From assembly GCF_026627925.1 (NCBI RefSeq), contig NZ_JAPNLE010000001.1, positions 372,001 to 436,000 on the forward strand: 64,000 nt of DNA, written 5' to 3'. This DNA comes from Cupriavidus sp. D39. GTDB lineage: Bacteria; Pseudomonadota; Gammaproteobacteria; Burkholderiales; Burkholderiaceae. The position numbers and the translations under genes are program-made. This document shows, in pieces, positions 37,165-45,695 of the stretch (the first letter of the stretch is position 1; every line of letters begins with the position of its first letter). The notes under the pieces are model-generated. The model made no database searches, was not told the DNA's origin, and saw only the letters and a program-made list of their open reading frames with translations.

Positions 37165-38507
37165 ATGGAAGCCGTAGCAAAGAAGAGTACAGAGACGATC
37201 AGCGAGGCGCTGCCAGCGGCGAGCAATCGCCAGGTGTTTGGTGCCGTGACGGCGTCCTGCATGGGATGGGCGCTGGACCTGTTCGACCTGTTCATCCTGC
37301 TGTTCGTGGCGCCGGTGATCGGCAGGCTGTTTTTCCCGTCGGAGCACGCGATGCTGTCGCTGGCTGCGGTGTATGCGTCGTTTGCCGTGACGCTGCTGAT
37401 GCGGCCGCTCGGCTCGGCGATTTTCGGCTCCTATGCCGACCGCCACGGCCGCAAGGGCGCGATGGTGGTTGCGGTTACCGGCGTTGGCTTGTCCACGGCG
37501 GCGTTCGGGCTGCTGCCCACGGTGGGACAGGTGGGCCTGCTTGCGCCAGCCTTGTTCATCCTGCTGCGGCTGGTGCAGGGGATCTTTGTCGGCGGCGTGG
37601 TGGCATCCACCCACACCATCGGCACTGAATCGGTGCCGCCGTCCTGGCGCGGCGCCGTCTCGGGGCTGGTTGGCGGCGGTGGCGCGGGTATCGGGGCACT
37701 GCTGGCTTCCATCACCTACATGGCAATGACTGCGCTGTTTCCCGGGGATGCGTTCGACACCTGGGGTTGGCGCTGCATGTTCTTCTCCGGCATCATCAGC
37801 TCGGTGCTCGGCCTATTCATCTTCAATTCGCTGGAGGAGTCGCCGCTGTGGAAGCAGTTGCAGGCGGCCAAGGGACATGCCGCTCCGGTTGAGAACCCGT
37901 TGCGTGTCCTGTTCTCCAGCAAGTACCGCGGCGTCCTTGTTGTCAACATCCTGCTCACGATCGGCGGTGGCAGCGCCTACTACCTGACCTCAGGCTATCT
38001 GCCGACCTTCCTCAAGGTCGTGGTAAAGGCTCCGGCGGGCGCATCCGCGGCCATCCTGATGGCCAGCAGTGTCGGCGTTATCGTGGCATCGATATTTGCC
38101 GGTCACCTCAGCACGCTGATTGGTCGCAAGCGATCCTTCCTGCTGATCGGCGCCTTGAACGTGGTGCTGCTGCCGTTGATCTACCAATGGATGCCCGCGG
38201 TACCGGATGTCACCACGCTTGGCATGTATGCCGTGGCGCTGGCGATGCTGGGCAGCATGGGTTTTGCTCCGATCCTCATTTTCCTGAACGAACGGTTCCC
38301 CACCAGCATCCGTGCCACGGGGACTGGCCTGTCATGGAATATCGGCTTTGCCATCGGCGGCATGATGCCGACGTTTGCGTCGCTGTGCGCGAGCACCCCG
38401 CCGACCTGCCAAAAGTGCTGGGGATCTTCGTCGCGGTGGTCACTGCCATTTACCTGGCCGGTGCGGCGATCGTTCCGGAGACCGCCGGCCGCCTTGGGGA
38501 AAAGTGA
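37165..38507 (+). pseudogene. MFS transporter of the aromatic-acid/metabolite:H+ symporter type, one frameshift
   Basis: The protein has 12 expected membrane helices, with MGWALDLFDLFILLF in helix 1, the loop GSYADRHGRKGAM between helices 2 and 3, and NERFPTSIRATGTGLSWNIG before helix 11. One base is missing at about 38387-38391; correcting it continues as EHPADLPKVLGIFVAVVTAI and ends GRLGEK after about 447 residues, normal for the family. An AAAGGAGACAAC site precedes the ATG. It is the last gene of cluster B and probably imports the substrate acid. Confidence 0.88.
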
Positions 38508-38690
38508 GGGTGACTGCGCAGTTAGGGAAACCCGGCCGTTCAGGACTGTCGCAGGACTGGACGGTCAGGCATCCCTTCGTGCGCTGGCATGGGCCTCGAC
38601 GGCGCCGCTGCGTCCAGGCGCTGTTTTGCCCAGTTGCGATGTTCGAGGGCGCGCCAATCCCGATGTGCAAACAACTGACTGGAGAGCCCT

Positions 38691-38728
38691 TCGCGATATG
38701 TGGTGTTGGCTCAAATGTGGTCTTGCGG
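38691..38728 (+). repeat. Left 38-bp terminal inverted repeat of the outer RIT
   Basis: Begins TCGCGATATGTGG and ends GTCTTGCGG. It is identical over 38 bases to the reverse complement of the right repeat. Inside are two direct copies of ATGTGGT, likely recombinase half-sites. A further 10-bp pair (GCCACATAAA at 38769-38778, TTTATGTGGC at 45430-45439) lies inside each end. Confidence 0.9.
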
Positions 38729-38785
38729 CGCCCGAGCCGCGATCCTGACAGGATCCGGCCGGCCGAACGCCACATAAAAAGCCTG

Positions 38786-39781
38786 CTACAAGGACCGGAG
38801 AAACGCCATCAGCGCGGGATCTTTGGCCCACCGCCTATTCGCCTTTCGATCGCTAGGGATAGTCAGCCGCGCCAGGGCGTTAGCCTTCGTCTCCAAATCA
38901 ATTTCGGCGTAAACGTTGGTCGTATCGATGGAGACATGACCAAGCCACGCCCGTACGGTATTGATATCGACGCCGGATCGAAGCAGGTGGGTCGCAGTTG
39001 AATGTCTAATGCTGTGCGGGCTGACGCGCTTGGATGCGAGCGAGGGCATATTGGCTCGCGCCTTGACAGCGTAACGCTCTACGACCGCGTGAATACCGAA
39101 GCGCGTCAGGGGTTGCCCACAGCGATTGAGGAATACCCGTTCCTGCGGTGGTCGTTGGCCAGCGAGGTTGCACAACTCTTGCACGGTGTCGGGCCATAGC
39201 GGACACTGGCGCCATTTGCGTCCCTTGCCGAGAACGCTCACGCTGCTGGAGATCGCATCGGCGTTGCCGATGGTCAGGTGGGCCGCCTCGTCCGCCCGCG
39301 CACCGGCATTGTAGAGAAACAGCAACAGGGCGTAGTCACGGCGACCTTGAGATGTACGTCGATCTGGACAAGCAAGGAGCGCATCCATTTCAGCTTTGTC
39401 GAGATAGGGCACCACCGCTCTTGTAGTCTTCTTGTAGGGGATGCAGCGCAACTGGGTGCACCATTGGATATGTTCCGGGCTGTGCTCGCCAACGAATCGA
39501 GCCAAAGCATGGATAGCAGCCAGACGCTGATTCCGCGTCGCAACGCTGCATCCGCGACAGACTTCGATGTCTGAGAGGAAGTCCCGGACGATCTCGGCCG
39601 ACACATCTGTCATTGCCAGCCGGTCGACCGGTTTGTGGGTTTGACCTGAAACGAAAGGGATCAGTTGGCACAGCGTGTCGCGGTAGCTCTGCTGGGTGTT
39701 GCGAGCGAGGTTCCGCTCGCCAATCAGGTACTCGAGCAGGAAACGCCGGACCCATGGGCCAAGTAGCATTGTGTCACGCAT
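38786..39781 (-). CDS. ritC: Tyrosine recombinase RitC of the outer RIT
   Basis: The 331-residue protein has a SAM-like core-binding domain (residues about 10-100) and a catalytic domain with Arg in NAGARADEAAHL, HSIRHSTATHLL (H-x-x-R), LGHVSIDTTNVYAEI with His and the nucleophilic Tyr, and a basic KGRKWRQ strand. ATG 39781 overlaps the ritB end by eight bases. A GTG three codons upstream is an alternative. Confidence 0.9.
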   Translation of the reverse strand: MRDTMLLGPWVRRFLLEYLIGERNLARNTQQSYRDTLCQLIPFVSGQTHKPVDRLAMTDVSAEIVRDFLSDIEVCRGCSVATRNQRLAAIHALARFVGEHSPEHIQWCTQLRCIPYKKTTRAVVPYLDKAEMDALLACPDRRTSQGRRDYALLLFLYNAGARADEAAHLTIGNADAISSSVSVLGKGRKWRQCPLWPDTVQELCNLAGQRPPQERVFLNRCGQPLTRFGIHAVVERYAVKARANMPSLASKRVSPHSIRHSTATHLLRSGVDINTVRAWLGHVSIDTTNVYAEIDLETKANALARLTIPSDRKANRRWAKDPALMAFLRSL

Positions 39782-40205
39782 GATCGTCACCTCCCCGGGC
39801 GTAGCGCTCGAATCGTAAGCTCGCCTGTTGCAGCAGCTCTGGCGTCATGGTCAGGTAGTGTTGGGTGGCGGCAATATGCACGTGACCAAGATAGGTTGCC
39901 AACTGAGGCAGCAAGCGTTGTACATCGGCGCCTTCGCGATACCAGGAGACCAACCGGGTAACCGTATAGGTGTGCCGAATGTCATGAAGTCGTGGCTGAT
40001 ACCGTGCACTATCGTCACGACGTACCTGTGCGCGTTCACGCAATTGTTTGAAGGCATACTCGGCGCCGGCTCTGGACAGGCGATGTCCGCGTTCCGTCAA
40101 CAGGAAGGCAGCGTCGCGGTTGAGCGGCGGCCATTTGTTGCGTTCGGCGGCATACTGAACCAGCACCGACGTTAGATCTGGTCCGGTCGGCACCAGCCGT
40201 GTCTT
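39774..40205 (-). pseudogene. ritB: 3' part of ritB of the outer RIT
   Basis: Reads KTRLVPTGPDLTSVLVQYAA then PRLHDIRHTYTVTRLV, YLGHVHIAATQHYLTM, the catalytic carboxy-terminal half of a tyrosine recombinase (H-x-x-R, His and Tyr intact). It lacks the amino half, which is found at 43616-44134. Joining TTCTACAA from that part with AAGACACGG here restores ESKFYKTRLVP, the expected continuous sequence. Confidence 0.9.
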
Positions 40206-40235
40206 GTGGCTACGCCGCTAGCGGCGTAGCCACAA
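40204..40235. repeat. Perfect 32-bp palindrome at the RIT-in-RIT junction
   Basis: TTGTGGCTACGCCGCT and its exact reverse complement are fused without spacer. It lies between the outer ritB coding sequence and the inner element's left terminal motif; four bases overlap that motif. Nothing comparable exists at the right junction. It could be part of the inner element end or a product of the insertion. Confidence 0.85.
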
Positions 40236-40340
40236 CTATGCCGAATTCACGGCAATGCCGATCAAGCTGGGATCGGATCCCGATGATGCTTGTAAAGAGC
40301 CCAGCAGGAGGTCAGTCTCAGGTCGCCGGATCGGCATAGT
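40232..40340. repeat. Left end of the inner RIT: paired ACTATGCCG motifs
   Basis: The outer copy ACAACTATGCCG (40232-40243) and the inverted inner copy GATCGGCATAGT (40329-40340) face each other about 86 bases apart. The same arrangement occurs at the right end, suggesting each end binds recombinases at two inverted sites. Confidence 0.75.
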
Positions 40341-40348
40341 TTTAATGG

Positions 40349-41347
40349 CTAAAGACCCTTGAGAAACGTCGCGAGCTTACTGTCAGGCCGGTATCGTACG
40401 GGCTTGCCATCATGTGGTTCGACATTAGCGAGAATTTGTTCCTTCAGCTCCAGACTGGCATCCAGGTACATCTGGGTTGTCTGGAGCGATTCATGGCCCA
40501 TCCACAGGGCGATGTTGAATGGATCCACGCCAGCTTGCAATAATTCCATGGCTGCCGTGTGCCTCAGCACGTGCGGCGTCACTCGTTTCTTTCGCAGCGA
40601 AGGACATCCCCTGGCAGCCTTGGTAGCGTACTTTTTCAGGAGACGTTGTACCGCGTCCGAACTGAGATGTCCACCTCGAACACTCGGAAACAGCGCGTCA
40701 CTGTTGGGTGTGCGAGGCTCTTTCATCCAAGCTTTTAGAATAGCGGCGGTCTGCTTGCTAAAAGGGGTAACGCGCTGTTTTCGACCTTTACCTACAACAT
40801 CAATGTGCGCGCCTGTGCCGAGGGTCACGTCCTCGCGTGTGAGGCCGGTCATTTCCGACACACGAAGTCCCGTCTCCACACCCAGTCGGAGTAAAGCATG
40901 ATCGCGACGACCACACCAGGTGCGCTTATCTGGTGCACCGAGCAGCGCCTTGACTTCCGGCCGCGTCAGAAAGTGAATGAGCCTGCGATCGTAGCGTTTG
41001 CCGGGCATCGACAGCACGCGCTGGATCTGCGCGGAATACGCGGGCGCCTCGAAGGCCGCGTAACGGAAGAACGAGCGAATCGCCGTCAGGCGCAGATTCC
41101 GGGTGCGGACACTGATAGCCCGGGTCTTCTCCAGATCATTCAGAAATGCTGTCACGAGCGGCGCATTGATGTCCTCAAATGCCAGATGATCCGGCGGTTT
41201 GCGCAGACGCTTGTAGGCAAAGCGAAGCAGCAGCCTGAACGTGTCCCGATAGGAACTGATGGTGTGCGGACTGGCCTGCCGCTGTTGCATGAGACGTTCC
41301 GTAAAGAACCGCTGCACTAATGCTGGGAAACCGACGGTAGATTTCAT
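40349..41347 (-). CDS. ritC: Tyrosine recombinase RitC of the inner RIT
   Basis: The 332-residue recombinase has the Arg of TGLRVSEMTGL, the beta-strand Lys region GKGRKQRVTPF, HVLRHTAAMELL and MGHESLQTTQMYLDAS with His and Tyr. The start overlaps the ritB stop by ATGA. All catalytic residues are present. Confidence 0.92.
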   Translation of the reverse strand: MKSTVGFPALVQRFFTERLMQQRQASPHTISSYRDTFRLLLRFAYKRLRKPPDHLAFEDINAPLVTAFLNDLEKTRAISVRTRNLRLTAIRSFFRYAAFEAPAYSAQIQRVLSMPGKRYDRRLIHFLTRPEVKALLGAPDKRTWCGRRDHALLRLGVETGLRVSEMTGLTREDVTLGTGAHIDVVGKGRKQRVTPFSKQTAAILKAWMKEPRTPNSDALFPSVRGGHLSSDAVQRLLKKYATKAARGCPSLRKKRVTPHVLRHTAAMELLQAGVDPFNIALWMGHESLQTTQMYLDASLELKEQILANVEPHDGKPVRYRPDSKLATFLKGL

Positions 41348-42276
41348 GACACATCCTTCCAGCGACGCTCCAGGCGCTTCATCGCCTGCTTCATGAGCTC
41401 TGGGTGCTGCTCGACATACCAGTACGTATCTCTCGCCCACTGGTGCCCGAGGAACGTCGACAGCACCGGTAACCAACGCACCGGGTCTTTACCCGATCGG
41501 TCTAATCTCGCCAGCGTCGTGACCGCAAATAAATGACGATAGTCGATCAGGCGGGGAGCGCGCTTTGCTGACGAATCGCGAAGACCGATTTCCCGTGTGA
41601 GCGCCGTAAATGTATGAGAAACCATGTCTCCACTGAGAGGCTTGCCTTGCGAAGTGATGAACACATGGGTTTCCGGGCGCCCCGCAAGACATCGCCCGCG
41701 ACGTCGAAGATAGTCTGCAAGTGCATCTCGAGTGGAGGAATGAATAGGAACCCACCTCGACTTTCCAAATTTACTTCCCCGCACCGTCAGTACGCCTTCT
41801 TTCAAGTCAACGTCTTCGAGTTCCAAATTGACCGCTTCACCGGGGCGCAACCCCGTGACGCTTAGCAGACCTATCAGCGTAAAATATGTCCACCGCCGCA
41901 GTCCCGATGCCGGAGGAAGAGCCAGCGCGGCAGCCAATATCTTCTGGGTTTCCTCATCGGTGTAAAGGTAGGGAGCGCGCCGATGATACCGGTGCGGCAA
42001 CAATTCGGCCCGTGGAATCTCTGTATGCGGATCGAAGGCACTCAGATAGCGTGCAAAGCCACGCACCACACCTAATCGCTGAGCCCAGATCACCGGTTGA
42101 ACCGACGGGGACTTTAGTGCCCAGGTCAACGCCAGTGACGCGCTGATGTGAGAGGCCCGACGTCGTTCCATAAAGCAGACGAAGTCTTCCAGACGTTGGC
42201 CTGCTTCATGGAGTTTGAATCCCAGACGACGACGCATCGTCAGGTATTCTTCCATTGATTTGCGTAGCGTACTCAT
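41344..42276 (-). CDS. ritB: Tyrosine recombinase RitB of the inner RIT
   Basis: The 310-residue recombinase has Arg in TGLRPGEAVNLELE, Lys in GSKFGKSRWVP, LGHQWARDTYWYVE with His and Tyr. The H-x-x-R box reads LIDYRHLF, so the first His is replaced by Ile while the Arg is kept; the outer element's RitB has LHDIRHTY. ATG 42276 gives the ATGA coupling seen at other junctions; an upstream start at 42294 is possible. Confidence 0.9.
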   Translation of the reverse strand: MSTLRKSMEEYLTMRRRLGFKLHEAGQRLEDFVCFMERRRASHISASLALTWALKSPSVQPVIWAQRLGVVRGFARYLSAFDPHTEIPRAELLPHRYHRRAPYLYTDEETQKILAAALALPPASGLRRWTYFTLIGLLSVTGLRPGEAVNLELEDVDLKEGVLTVRGSKFGKSRWVPIHSSTRDALADYLRRRGRCLAGRPETHVFITSQGKPLSGDMVSHTFTALTREIGLRDSSAKRAPRLIDYRHLFAVTTLARLDRSGKDPVRWLPVLSTFLGHQWARDTYWYVEQHPELMKQAMKRLERRWKDVS

Positions 42277-43505
42277 GATCGGGTGCTCGGCCATGGCGGC
42301 GCCAAGGTCCGCAGTGAATCCAGGTCGACCTTCGCGTATATTCTCGTCGAGTCGGGACTTTTGTGGCGCAAGACTTCGCTAATCTCGGCCAGCGAGGATC
42401 CTTGACGCAGCATCTGCGTCGCTAACGCATGCCGGAATTGATGGGCTCCTTTTCTCGACGAATCGATACCAGCCCGCTCCAGAGCGTATCTGACTACATT
42501 GCATACCGCTTTTTCCGTCTTGAACCCACGAATCGGCGCGTTTATACGCAGGAAGACACTTCGACTCTCAGAATCCGAGCGACCGTTTTTCAGGTAGTCG
42601 GCGATCGCTTCACCCACCGGCGCGAGTAATGGCAACGGCGAATCCTGACCGCCTTTTCCGTGAATGTTCAACGTGCCCGTTTCCCAATCGATGTCATCCA
42701 ACGTCAAGGAAACCACCTCGCCACTCCGCAATCCCAGCCGGGCAAGGAGGAGCAGAATCGCATAATCCCGGCGGCCGACGGGGCGACGGCGGTCGCAACT
42801 GGCCAACGCTCGCCTAGCATACTCAGGGGAAATCGCTTTGGGGATTAACGCCATTAACCAGTGGGCGACCCTGGGGATCGCTGCGGCGAGGTCAAGCTTG
42901 ATCAATCCACGATAACGCGCATACTGCAAAAACGAGCGCAAGACCTTTGCGATCGATTGCGCTCGCGCAGGACTTTGAGTGGCCTCATGCTGAACAAAGT
43001 CGATGATCTCGCGAGCACGGAGATCCGAGAGCCGCGTCGCCCCATCACCGAATTGCTTTGTTAAAAACAAATGCGCACACCACCGATATTTCCTGATCGT
43101 CGTGGCTGCCAAGCCTCGTTCCTGGTGCAGATACAAAGAGTATTCGTTTACCAATTTTTCAACTGGTGTCTGCGCAACGGGCGCGTCCTTTGCAACGATT
43201 CCATTTTCTTGCAGCAATTGTATAAAGCGTCTTAGCGCATATTTTGCGCCGTTCCGATGACAGCGGTGGTGTGCCCGGTAGCGCAGATAACGCTGCGCGG
43301 TTTCATGAGTCACTTCCTCAATCGACATTTTCTTGCACTTGAGCCACACGCTGAAATCGGCAACGAGAAGCAAGTGCCTGCGAATAGACTCTTGCGCGTA
43401 GCCTTGATCATTCAGCAGACCTTCAAATGCACCGAGTCGTTCAGCAAGGGGGCCCTCGGGTGTATCGAGTGGGTGCGACCGCGTTTTGGGGTACAACTTC
43501 TCCAT
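42273..43505 (-). CDS. ritA: Tyrosine recombinase RitA of the inner RIT
   Basis: The 410-residue recombinase has a longer amino-terminal part (about 190 residues of core-binding helices) before the catalytic domain: RLGLRSGEVVSLTLDD, HGKGGQDSPLPL, HQFRHALATQML and LRHKSPDSTRIYAKVD. In the last box Arg-His precedes the usual Gly position (LRHK instead of LGHR). ATG 43505 is chosen; the frame continues to a TTG at 43541. It is the first gene of the trio. Confidence 0.9.
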   Translation of the reverse strand: MEKLYPKTRSHPLDTPEGPLAERLGAFEGLLNDQGYAQESIRRHLLLVADFSVWLKCKKMSIEEVTHETAQRYLRYRAHHRCHRNGAKYALRRFIQLLQENGIVAKDAPVAQTPVEKLVNEYSLYLHQERGLAATTIRKYRWCAHLFLTKQFGDGATRLSDLRAREIIDFVQHEATQSPARAQSIAKVLRSFLQYARYRGLIKLDLAAAIPRVAHWLMALIPKAISPEYARRALASCDRRRPVGRRDYAILLLLARLGLRSGEVVSLTLDDIDWETGTLNIHGKGGQDSPLPLLAPVGEAIADYLKNGRSDSESRSVFLRINAPIRGFKTEKAVCNVVRYALERAGIDSSRKGAHQFRHALATQMLRQGSSLAEISEVLRHKSPDSTRIYAKVDLDSLRTLAPPWPSTRS

Positions 43506-43545
43506 GACCTGCGCCTCTTGTAAAAGAGGGTCTAATATCAATCAG

Positions 43546-43632
43546 ACTATGCCGATCAGGTTTCGTTCATTGTCCTTGAATTGCAGCTCGCCATGTCCAA
43601 ATCGAACATAGTTAACTACGCGGCATAGTTGT
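43546..43632. repeat. Right end of the inner RIT: paired ACTATGCCG motifs
   Basis: ACTATGCCGATC (43546-43557) is the exact inverse of the motif at 40329-40340, and CGGCATAGTTGT (43621-43632) the exact inverse of 40232-40243. The end therefore mirrors the left end, with about 63 bases between the two motifs. Confidence 0.75.
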
Positions 43633-44134
43633 AGAACTTGCTTTCACGGATGCAAAGGATTCCAGAGTCCAGATCCACATCCGCCAGATTCAGACTGACA
43701 GCCTCGCCGATGCGAAGCCCAGTACCATAGAGCAGTAGCAGGAGCGTCCGGCAGGTTAGCGATGACAGATTGCAGCGCTCACGATCCGCCGTCGCCGCCA
43801 GTAGACGCTTCATCTCTTCTCGCGAATAGATGTACGGCACGAAGGTTCGGGGTTCCTTGGGTACCGTTAAGGGTAATGGTGAACTGGCGGTGTAGCCGCG
43901 AGCAATGGCAAAGCGGTAGAAGCCGCGCAGCGCGCTGAGCTTGCGATGCCAGAAAGCCGTGATGGGACCCTTGCCGGCAAGGAACGCATAGACACGATCG
44001 GCGTCGATCTCGCGCATATCGATGTCGCCGAGCGTTCGATAAAAGGACTTCAAGGTACGCGCCTCAGTGGCAAAGCGCATCCCCAGTGACTGTTTGTAGG
44101 CCACGTACGCGACAACCGCTTCAGGCAGTTTCAT
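43616..44134 (-). pseudogene. ritB: 5' part of ritB of the outer RIT
   Basis: Encodes the core-binding domain (VVAYVAYKQSLGMRFATEAR) and the first part of the catalytic domain with TGLRIGEAVSLNLADVDLD and IRESKFY. The frame then enters the inner element and stops a few codons later (NYAA). The start overlaps the ritA stop by ATGA. The remainder of the gene is at 39774-40205. Confidence 0.9.
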
Positions 44135-45378
44135 AGCAAGTCTCCTAGGGCAAAGTCAGCAACCTGCCTCAGGCCAGCCAGATCGACCTTGGCATAGGTG
44201 CGCGTCGCATAGGCGCTGCGATGACCCAGGTGGTCACCGATTTCCTTGAGTGAGAGTCCCTCAGCCACGAGATGGGTCGCGCACGCGTGTCGAAGTGAAT
44301 GCGGTCCACCACGACGGCAACTGATATTCAGAACCCGCAATCGTCGGTTGACCAGGTAGTGCAGACTCGTAGGCGCGAGTGGACAAAACGGGGCTCGTAT
44401 GGTGAGAAACAAAGAGCGCGAGCCAATATGAGGTCGCACCTGTTTCAGATACCGCAGAATTGCTTCACCTACCTCGGCTGCAAGCGGGTAGTCCTGTTTG
44501 CTCCGCTGCTTTGGACGGCTGATGTGAAGGATGTCATGTTCCCAGTCCACGTCGTCCAGTGTCAGGGCCACGACTTCACCCCTTCTCAGCCCGTAGACCG
44601 CGAGGAGCAACAGAATGGCGCGGTCCCGGATATCATGGGGACTGTCCGTATCGGTGCTGCGAATGAGTCGCTGCACGTCTTCCCACTTCGGCCCGGCTGG
44701 AAGCGTCTCGTGGCTGAACAGACGCGGTCCTTCGATACCGGCGGCGAGTCTCTTCGAACACCAGGTTTGCTCACCGGCGTAGCGGAGGAAACTTCGCACC
44801 GCGCCAGCAAGGCTGGCCATCGATACCCGGGACCAGCCTTGCATTCGTCTCAGTGCAAAGAAGGCGTCGACCTGTTCGAGTCGCATCTCGCCGATGCTGC
44901 TTCCTTGCTCGCTGAGCCAGGACAAAAACGCCTGAACGTGCCAGCATCGATTGTGAATCGTGTGTGACGACAGGCCGCGCTCCTCGCGCAAGTAGCTGTC
45001 GAACCGTTGAACAAGATCGACGAATGGCGGCGTTTCAGGTTGCTGCTCCTGCAGTCGTCCCAGGAAGCGAAGCCAGGCCGTAGCGGTCTGAATAAACCGT
45101 TCCCGCGAGAACCTTCCCGTCAGGATTCGCTGATGCCGTCGCTGGTAACGAACCCAGCGATCGGCTGCTATCTCGACCTCCGCAGACGGAATCAATCGTC
45201 CGTTGTCGAGCGCGATACGCTGGGAAATTGCCAGGAGCTCAGGTGCAAGGCTCAACAGCGTTGAATGGGCTGCACCGCCCTGTGCGCAGTGGTCCAGATA
45301 GCGTTCTCGATCATCGGCCGATGGACCATTGCGATGACGAGCCAGTACACGAGGGTAATGAAACAACGTACTGAACAT
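44131..45378 (-). CDS. ritA: Tyrosine recombinase RitA of the outer RIT
   Basis: The 415-residue recombinase has a long amino part, then YGLRRGEVVALTLDDVDW, KQRSKQDYPL, HSLRHACATHLV and LGHRSAYATRTYAKVD, with all catalytic residues (R, K, H, R, H, Y). It is the first gene of the outer trio, read inward from the right terminal repeat. Confidence 0.92.
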   Translation of the reverse strand: MFSTLFHYPRVLARHRNGPSADDRERYLDHCAQGGAAHSTLLSLAPELLAISQRIALDNGRLIPSAEVEIAADRWVRYQRRHQRILTGRFSRERFIQTATAWLRFLGRLQEQQPETPPFVDLVQRFDSYLREERGLSSHTIHNRCWHVQAFLSWLSEQGSSIGEMRLEQVDAFFALRRMQGWSRVSMASLAGAVRSFLRYAGEQTWCSKRLAAGIEGPRLFSHETLPAGPKWEDVQRLIRSTDTDSPHDIRDRAILLLLAVYGLRRGEVVALTLDDVDWEHDILHISRPKQRSKQDYPLAAEVGEAILRYLKQVRPHIGSRSLFLTIRAPFCPLAPTSLHYLVNRRLRVLNISCRRGGPHSLRHACATHLVAEGLSLKEIGDHLGHRSAYATRTYAKVDLAGLRQVADFALGDLL

Positions 45379-45479
45379 GATCGGATCTCCGAGTTAACCT
45401 TCGGATCTCCGACACTACTCCGGCGCCAATTTATGTGGCCTTCAATAGGCATACACCGCTGACGAACCTCGTACTGTCC

Positions 45480-45517
45480 CCGCAAGACCACATTTGAGCC
45501 AACACCACATATCGCGA
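45480..45517 (-). repeat. Right 38-bp terminal inverted repeat of the outer RIT
   Basis: Exact reverse complement of 38691-38728. It defines the right edge of the outer element, about 100 bases upstream of ritA. Confidence 0.9.
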
Positions 45518-45544
45518 CAAGTGTGATCGATCACATTTGTCGCG
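45513..45544. repeat. 32-bp near-perfect palindrome at the right RIT border
   Basis: CGCGACAAGTGTGATC is followed by its reverse complement with one mismatched pair. It overlaps the last five bases of the terminal repeat and extends into the flank. It may be part of the target site or an operator; the left flank has no equivalent. Confidence 0.65.
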
Positions 45545-45695
45545 GGAAAACCGCACACCGGATTCGGAGGGAGGGGACGGCGCTCGCCGTTTCCTACCCC
45601 TATCCCATCGGCCCTTTAAGCCGTTCGCGGATCGCTGGCGAAGGCTGACCAGAACCATGACGCGGATGTCCGCTTTCGAGAAGGCCACGAGTCGC

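What the first reader, a model, noticed from the sequence alone, without database searches (positions are those of the whole stretch)
38691..45517. A RIT element nested inside ritB of another RIT element
Six tyrosine-recombinase genes in a row resolve into two three-gene modules. The outer module (ritA 44131-45378, ritB in two parts, ritC 38786-39781) has its ritB cut after the ESKFY codons by a complete second module (40349-43505). Re-joining the ritB halves gives an uninterrupted protein. RIT elements are known as trios of different recombinases of unclear mechanism; one inserted into another of different sequence shows both moved and that ritB coding sequence can be a target.
Basis: partly seen in the sequence, partly recalled or inferred. 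Interest (0 to 1): 0.85.

Follow-up and report, generated by a model that had tools for sequence, protein, structure and literature searches.

The report
RIT element nested inside another RIT
A small mobile element made of three recombinase genes has inserted into the active-site codons of a recombinase gene of a second such element, and a wider comparison suggests that such elements usually aim at conserved motifs in genes of other mobile elements.

Summary
A 3,425-bp insertion (window 40210-43634) splits the outer ritB. The same genome holds an uninterrupted copy of the outer RIT (98%, contig C11), so a natural empty site exists.

The insertion recurs. The same guest family (86-97% identical to the window's guest) sits at the same codons (SKFx|K(T/S)R) in ritB of five RITs whose RitB parts share only 34-43%, once in reverse.

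Of 77 RITs with ends, a host was recognised for 65, at a motif read in the flank, often from one side only: 44 tyrosine-recombinase genes (37 at HxxRH), 8 IS66, 2 IS21-type transposases, 1 rve transposase, 1 serine recombinase, 2 RadC, 2 TrbI, 2 DUF932, 2 ArdC, 1 group II intron domain V. Target class follows RIT phylogeny.

Typical anatomy: target, 6 bp, RIT, 6 bp, 20-bp palindrome, 6 bp, target. This suggests integration of a circle by tyrosine recombinases at 6-bp cores; no movement was observed.

RITs, and 'complex combinations' of them on pHG1, were known. A 2023 table lists RIT target specificity and empty sites as not tested. Ricker 2013 could not be read.

The parts
38650..38689 (+). 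T2 flank of the outer RIT, read as the 5' strand of a group II intron domain V relic (ends GGAGAGCCC)
   Evidence: 38648-38695 matches contig C9 (93.8%), where the flank runs on into GTCGCG GGAAAACC without an element; Rfam Intron_gpII covers the C9 site only weakly, E 0.041, below gathering
38690..38695 (+). 6-bp spacer s3 of the outer RIT (TTCGCG)
   Evidence: C9 has GTCGCG
38696..38728 (+). outer RIT left arm, part of the 38-bp perfect inverted repeat 38691-38728
38786..39790 (-). outer ritC (334 aa)
39774..40203 (-). outer ritB, 3' part (from the K(T)R codons on)
   Evidence: 95% to RitB residues 177-316
40204..40209 (+). spacer s1 of the inner RIT (TTGTGG on +)
40210..40229 (+). 20-bp palindrome CTACGCCGCTAGCGGCGTAG of the inner RIT, on the KTR (3') side of the target
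   Evidence: (I13); absent from the empty ritB on C11
40230..40235 (+). spacer s2 of the inner RIT (CCACAA on +, reverse complement of s1)
40236..43628 (-). inner RIT element between its terminal arms
40349..41347 (-). inner ritC (332 aa)
41344..42294 (-). inner ritB (316 aa)
42273..43505 (-). inner ritA (410 aa)
43629..43634 (+). spacer s3 of the inner RIT (TTGTAG on +)
   Evidence: the empty C11 ritB has CTGTAG
43635..44134 (-). outer ritB, 5' part (up to ESKF)
   Evidence: 98% to RitB residues 7-177
44131..45378 (-). outer ritA (415 aa)
45480..45512 (+). outer RIT right arm, part of the inverted repeat 45480-45517
45513..45518 (+). spacer s2 of the outer RIT (CGCGAC)
45519..45538 (+). 20-bp palindrome of the outer RIT
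   Evidence: (I11)
45539..45544 (+). spacer s1 of the outer RIT (GTCGCG)
45545..45607 (+). T1 flank of the outer RIT, read as the rest of domain V (GGAAAACCGC...) and domain VI
   Evidence: 45539-45599 matches C9 at 96.7%; by analogy with the C11 copy, which lies in domain V of a group II intron

Best explanation
The window holds a RIT element (3.4 kb, three tyrosine-recombinase genes) that integrated by site-specific recombination into the catalytic-lysine hairpin codons of ritB of a second RIT, which itself sits in what looks like domain V of a group II intron relic. SHOWN by sequence comparison: the ends; a natural empty ritB in the same genome; 6-bp spacers at the junctions; a 20-bp palindrome (two arm-like halves back to back) on a fixed side of the target; either orientation of the element; repeated insertion at the same codons in distantly related hosts; target class following element phylogeny. 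INFERRED: the RIT moves as a circle whose joint is arm - 6 bp - palindrome - 6 bp - arm. RitA, RitB and RitC recombine one of its two 6-bp cores with a matching core in the target. Because the joint is nearly symmetric, the element can enter in either orientation while the palindrome stays on the same target side. Target and circle spacers end up at the two junctions, and the third spacer (s2) is a relic of an earlier site. Targets are conserved codons of other mobile elements because such DNA recurs wherever those elements go, as with homing introns and inteins (that comparison is recalled).
For: Empty site: contig C11 of the same genome carries the outer RIT without insert, 97.5% and 97.8% over 1886 and 1515 bp that meet at the target bases. 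Recurrence: guests 86-97% identical to the window's in four further hosts (pENH92, pHG1, Caballeronia jiangsuensis, X32 relic of 329 bp); the 120-aa RitB parts before the site are 34-43% identical in all 10 pairs of the five hosts. The break is after Lys-Phe-x in all five; one guest is reversed. Survey: 65 of 77 RITs with a recognised host. In 29 of 52 elements the rejoined 66-nt flanks read an open recognisable motif in the forward frames (e.g. HVLRHTTAM, YIYVRQST, CVHNHPSG, SHEVTHWT). Both RadC hosts break at position 75 of the Pfam RadC profile, and four IS66 flank pieces of three hosts begin at position 7-8 of the IS66 C-terminal profile. A palindrome was found in 52 of 76 elements examined (28 perfect). 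Spacers, after dropping 7 mis-registered and 4 more with palindromes on both sides: s1 equals s3 in 14 of 41; the reverse complement of s2 equals the element's own s1 or s3 in 22 of 41, against 36 of 422 comparisons with other elements of the same class. The C11 outer copy carries s1 GTCGCG, the spacer of the C9 site and of s1 in the window copy, while its s3 and the intact related intron have AGTGCG. Target class on the RitC tree: 13 changes, shuffled mean 26.3, as low in 0 of 200.
Against: No circle, excision or transposition was observed. In the 41 clean elements s1 differs from s3 in 27; s2 agrees with s1 in 9 of these, with s3 in 7 and with neither in 11, so which junction keeps the target's spacer is not constant and the bookkeeping is not fully explained. 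No palindrome was found in 24 of 76, several for want of flank. Five of 52 (L081, L087, L099, L134, L138) have palindromes on both sides, and L018, L049 and L096 show the same target half on both sides, which the simple model does not predict (assembly artefacts not excluded). Orientation in the clean HxxRH set is 6 '+' to 14 '-', not even. L059 and L129 have flanks but no recognised host. Random points in the same loci gave recombinase matches on at least one flank in 44 of 600 and on both in 20 of 600, so recombinase genes are locally enriched. Domain V at the window's own site rests on a weak Rfam match at C9 (E 0.041) and on analogy with C11; the split window site gave no match. Many hosts are identified from one flank only, and classes were assigned by hand.
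Confidence: 0.85

Rival explanations
1. One ancient insertion inherited by all the six-gene clusters (a conserved compound element), not repeated targeting.
For: In all five type-1 hosts that could be read, the site is the same ritB codon.
Against: Host RitB parts are 34-43% identical while guests are 86-97% identical to the window's; the outer flanks share no DNA match with pHG1 and X32 and only 38 and 56 bp with the other two; one guest is reversed; an uninterrupted outer copy exists.
Confidence: 0.03
2. RITs prefer palindromes or hairpins, and motifs of mobile-element genes are hit only because such genes are common near RITs.
For: Recombinase genes are enriched near RITs (44 of 600 random points with a match on at least one flank); a palindrome adjoins many elements; domain V is a hairpin.
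Against: The empty sites seen (C11 ritB, C9, intron L152) lack the palindrome. Border residues cluster at RitC 258-263 in most HxxRH rows (a few short alignments stop at 243-254). Target class tracks RIT phylogeny.
Confidence: 0.07
3. Insertion by homologous recombination or gene conversion between similar recombinase genes of host and guest.
For: Guest and most hosts encode tyrosine recombinases with similar motifs.
Against: Ends are sharp inverted repeats with 6-bp spacers; hosts also include IS66, RadC, TrbI, ArdC and a group II intron, which are unrelated to RIT genes.
Confidence: 0.02
4. The same homing, but by copy-out/copy-in as proposed for SE elements, with the donor copy kept, rather than by excision.
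For: 6-bp footprints recall SE and Tn554 (PMC10214605); RITs occur in several copies per genome; the C11 outer copy carries a C1/C9-type spacer while the C1 copy is still in place.
Against: No data on circles or donor sites; no Tfp or Srap gene lies in the element.
Confidence: 0.35

Closest known systems
RIT elements (recombinase in trio)
   Same: Three overlapping tyrosine-recombinase genes ritA-B-C in one direction, about 3.5 kb, an inverted repeat and palindrome at the ends, insertions in radC and transposase genes, and 'complex combinations' on pHG1 (PMC3414803, section read; PMC2864759, passages).
   Different: Codon-exact insertion at catalytic motifs, the 6-bp spacer anatomy, the palindrome-side rule and RIT-in-RIT nesting with an empty site are not in the passages I read; Ricker 2013 and Van Houdt 2009 were not read.
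SE elements, GInts and Tn554
   Same: Several tyrosine recombinases, target specificity, 6-bp footprint for SE and Tn554 (PMC10214605, passages and Discussion; GInt paper PMC5385486, passages).
   Different: SEs and GInts carry further conserved proteins (Tfp/GinC, Srap/GinD; TnpC in Tn554) and are mostly larger; RITs have the palindrome and three spacers.
Homing introns and inteins in active-site motifs
   Same: Target the most conserved codons (recalled, not from a call).
   Different: They are spliced out and spare the gene product; a RIT leaves the gene broken while it is there.

Membership tests
RIT element (inner) | three adjacent, overlapping tyrosine-recombinase genes A-B-C on one strand | tested here: met
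   overlaps of 4 and 22 bp
RIT element (inner) | terminal inverted repeats and about 3.4-3.5 kb | tested here: met
   40236-43628, ends CTATGCCG/CGGCATAG, same ends in relatives
RIT element (inner) | catalytic residues in all three recombinases | tested here: inconclusive
   RitC has HxxRH and Tyr; inner RitB has Ile in place of the first box II His; RitA was only read by eye
RIT element (inner) | mobility | tested here: met
   by comparison only: empty site and separate insertions; no experiment
RIT element (outer) | trio with inverted repeats; intact copy elsewhere | tested here: met
   38-bp perfect repeat; intact C11 copy
SE / GInt | Tfp/GinC and Srap/GinD genes beside the integrases | tested here: not met
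   one search lists no ORF of 90 aa or more between the guest's arms that does not overlap the three genes
SE / GInt | 6-bp spacer exchange | tested here: inconclusive
   6-bp spacers present and correlated; no recombination assay

The most novel reading that the evidence does not exclude
RIT elements as a whole are homing parasites of the mobilome: each RIT clade recognises the DNA of one conserved motif (recombinase HxxRH or Lys hairpin, IS66, IS21-type and rve transposases, serine-recombinase YxRxS, RadC HNHPSG, ArdC HExxH, group II intron domain V), so they nest in other mobile elements and in each other, and carry up to three 6-bp spacers that record present and past targets.
Probability: 0.65. 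Interest if true: 0.85.

Novelty: new variant of a known kind. Interest (0 to 1): 0.74.

Why it matters
A 2023 table lists target specificity, empty sites and movement of RITs as not tested by experiment. The comparison here gives concrete, testable answers: core site, 6-bp spacer, predicted circle joint and a natural empty site. It offers a reading of the 'maze' of recombinase genes on pHG1 as RITs nested at catalytic codons of RITs. It also suggests that mobile elements disable one another at their active sites, which bears on how they compete.

Tried and rejected
Rejected: palindrome as part of the target (absent from the empty ritB on C11, from C9 and from intron L152). Rejected: simple target-site duplication as the whole story (s1 equals s3 in 14 of 41). 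Rejected: palindrome always at the ritC end (it is at either end), or always 3' of the host gene (so in the recombinase, RadC, ArdC, rve and serine-recombinase hosts read, but on the 5' side in the IS66, TrbI, DUF932 and IS21-type hosts read).

Led nowhere: Rfam on the window flanks (no match); hosts of L059 and L129; Pfam on several wrong-frame flank ORFs. The palindrome search failed in 24 of 76 elements. Seven mis-registered ones (L059, L077, L079, L081, L104, L128, L147) were left out of the first spacer count (45), and four more with palindromes on both sides (L087, L099, L134, L138) out of the second (41). The first count gave 15 of 45 and 23 of 45 against 50 of 550. Host classes were written by hand into; later confirmed RadC for both hosts, IS66 for four and a recombinase for L134.
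Full report
CHECK OF THE OBSERVATION. The window comes from a Cupriavidus-like genome (inferred: genome G301 of the same genus group holds a match at the same coordinates as the C. oxalaticus X32 plasmid). It holds six tyrosine-recombinase genes on the minus strand between 38786 and 45378. All match tyrosine-recombinase models below the NCBIfam cut-offs. The outer repeats are a perfect 38-bp inverted repeat. Outer ritB is in two pieces that match RitB residues 7-177 and 177-316.

EMPTY SITE. A search of the whole genome found the outer RIT again on contig C11, 98% identical and without the guest. Its two parts, 1886 and 1515 bp, meet on C11 within the target bases. C11 reads GTGTCCTGTAGAAC where the window has GTGTCTTGT and TTGTAGAAC at the two junctions. 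The C11 copy encodes one RitB of 311 aa with ESKFYRTRLVP. The next best matches to the guest in this genome are about 70%.

RECURRENCE. The guest family occurs in C. necator NH9 pENH92 (91%), H16 pHG1 (97% and 95% in two pieces), Caballeronia jiangsuensis (86%) and as a relic in C. oxalaticus X32 (94% over 329 bp). In each it follows Lys-Phe-x of a RitB-like gene: window KFY, NH9 KFK, pHG1 KFR, C. jiangsuensis KFG, X32 KFG. The 120-aa RitB parts before the site are 34-43% identical in all ten pairs, so these are separate insertions. In C. jiangsuensis the element is reversed, yet the palindrome still lies on the K(S/T)R side. Another near copy (L071, 94%) fills its contig; L018 and L047 gave no readable host.

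LAYERS. The window's outer RIT lies between flanks that are joined in contig C9 as GAGAGCCC GTCGCG GGAAAACCGC, which I read as group II intron domain V. Rfam gives only E 0.041 there, below gathering, and nothing on the split window site. Stronger evidence comes from the C11 copy. Its two flanks match adjacent stretches of domain V/VI of an intact group II intron on contig C6 (77% over 65 bp and 89% over 117 bp; Rfam E 0.00015 for that intron). On pHG1, one host RIT carries a type-1 guest at the Lys hairpin of ritB. The guest's ritC is cut at residue 263 by a type-2 RIT, next to ISAe1, and a further type-2 RIT adjoins the host ritB fragment and probably sits in its HxxRH box. Earlier authors called this region a maze (PMC2864759, passages) or complex combinations (PMC3414803, section).

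SURVEY. They gave 123 trio-like clusters. Of these, 106 had three or more gene matches and an end alignment, and 77 remained after dropping inverted-repeat scores under 19 and duplicates. Ends were set by hand for the window guest, for one end of L010 and of L047, and the score was overridden for L009. Of the 77, 41 had a recombinase match on at least one flank and 23 on both (21 of these on one strand). With Pfam and frame reading, 65 of 77 got a host class: recombinase HxxRH 37 (four of them ritB), RitB Lys hairpin 4, recombinase box III 3, IS66 8, IS21-type transposase 2 (name IstA recalled; Pfam gives HTH, Mu-transpos_C_2 and a weak rve), rve 1, serine recombinase 1, RadC 2, TrbI 2, DUF932 2, ArdC 2, group II intron 1. 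Twelve got none: ten with flanks too short or unreadable, two (L059, L129) unknown. Conservation of the TrbI and DUF932 stretches was judged from two members each, not tested. By my reading, another RIT gene of the host trio is visible beside the split gene in 12 of 77: window, L009, L010, L046, L049, L052, L053, L083, L101, L118, L143, L149. The scan ranks by likeness to a RitC alignment, so class shares are not population frequencies; some rows are copies in one genome (L077/L079; L094/L095/L097).

ANATOMY AND MECHANISM. Reading along the target, the order is T2 - s3 - RIT - s2 - palindrome - s1 - T1, with 6-bp spacers. I noticed no exception to a constant palindrome side within a target class with two or more readable members, while the RIT lies in either direction: in the clean HxxRH set 6 '+' and 14 '-'. 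Five of 52 have palindromes on both sides. A circle joint that is itself nearly palindromic, with two usable cores, explains the rule. The reverse complement of s2 equals the element's own s1 or s3 in 22 of 41, against 36 of 422 comparisons with other elements of the class. In the C11 outer copy s1 is GTCGCG, as at C9 and at s1 of the window copy, while s3 and the intact intron have AGTGCG, as if s1 came from an earlier site. SE elements leave a related 6-bp footprint (PMC10214605). Circle formation, joint action of the three recombinases and the time order of spacers are inference.

SPECIFICITY BELONGS TO THE ELEMENT. On a quick tree of 63 RitC proteins, the 12 target classes need 13 changes (11 is the minimum); shuffled labels need 26.3 on average and never as few in 200. 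IS66-, IstA-, TrbI-, DUF932- and RitB-Lys-targeting RITs each form one side of a branch (DUF932 with support 94). HxxRH needs 7 changes, box III 2, and RadC and ArdC are not grouped. L148 and L013 are long branches of unsure place, and near-copies add to the clustering.

LITERATURE. Searches in the open library led to five papers that mention RITs and that I opened (PMC3414803, PMC2864759, PMC10214605, PMC8138268, PMC5385486: passages or sections). None of what I read describes motif-directed insertion of RITs. PMC10214605 Table 1 lists RIT target specificity, empty site and movement as NT. Ricker 2013 was not held, and Van Houdt 2009 was not looked up, so priority is not claimed.

Noticed in passing
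G000 contig C1 about 223.4-226.5 kb (L069:7380-10488): A second, different RIT in the same contig sits in an IS66 transposase gene, just before KLNGLDPYAYL codons (IS66 C-terminal element).
   Followed up: partly
L011:4317-4360 (C. oxalaticus X32 plasmid): Two ritC 3' halves joined head to head through a palindrome (GACTATATCGTGAACGATATAGTC) without a RIT between: possibly a product of RIT-mediated recombination between two target sites.
   Followed up: no
L018, L049, L096 and L081, L087, L099, L134, L138: RITs with the same target half on both sides in inverted order (first three) or with palindromes on both sides (last five); assembly artefacts or real inversion products.
   Followed up: partly
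L157 (pHG1 28000-50000): Cluster of nested RITs: host RIT, type-1 guest in ritB, type-2 RITs at catalytic codons of the guest's ritC and probably of the host's ritB, plus ISAe1.
   Followed up: partly
window 37165-38510: An MFS transporter gene just left of the outer RIT seems to change reading frame near 38385; sequencing error or a real frameshift.
   Followed up: no
L158:7003-7925 (pHG1): Remnant of the outer-type RIT (ritC matches only, 94-96%, in two frames) between hydrogenase gene clusters.
   Followed up: no
window 41344-42294: The guest's own ritB also encodes SKFGKSR, close to its own target; how it avoids inserting into itself is open.
   Followed up: no
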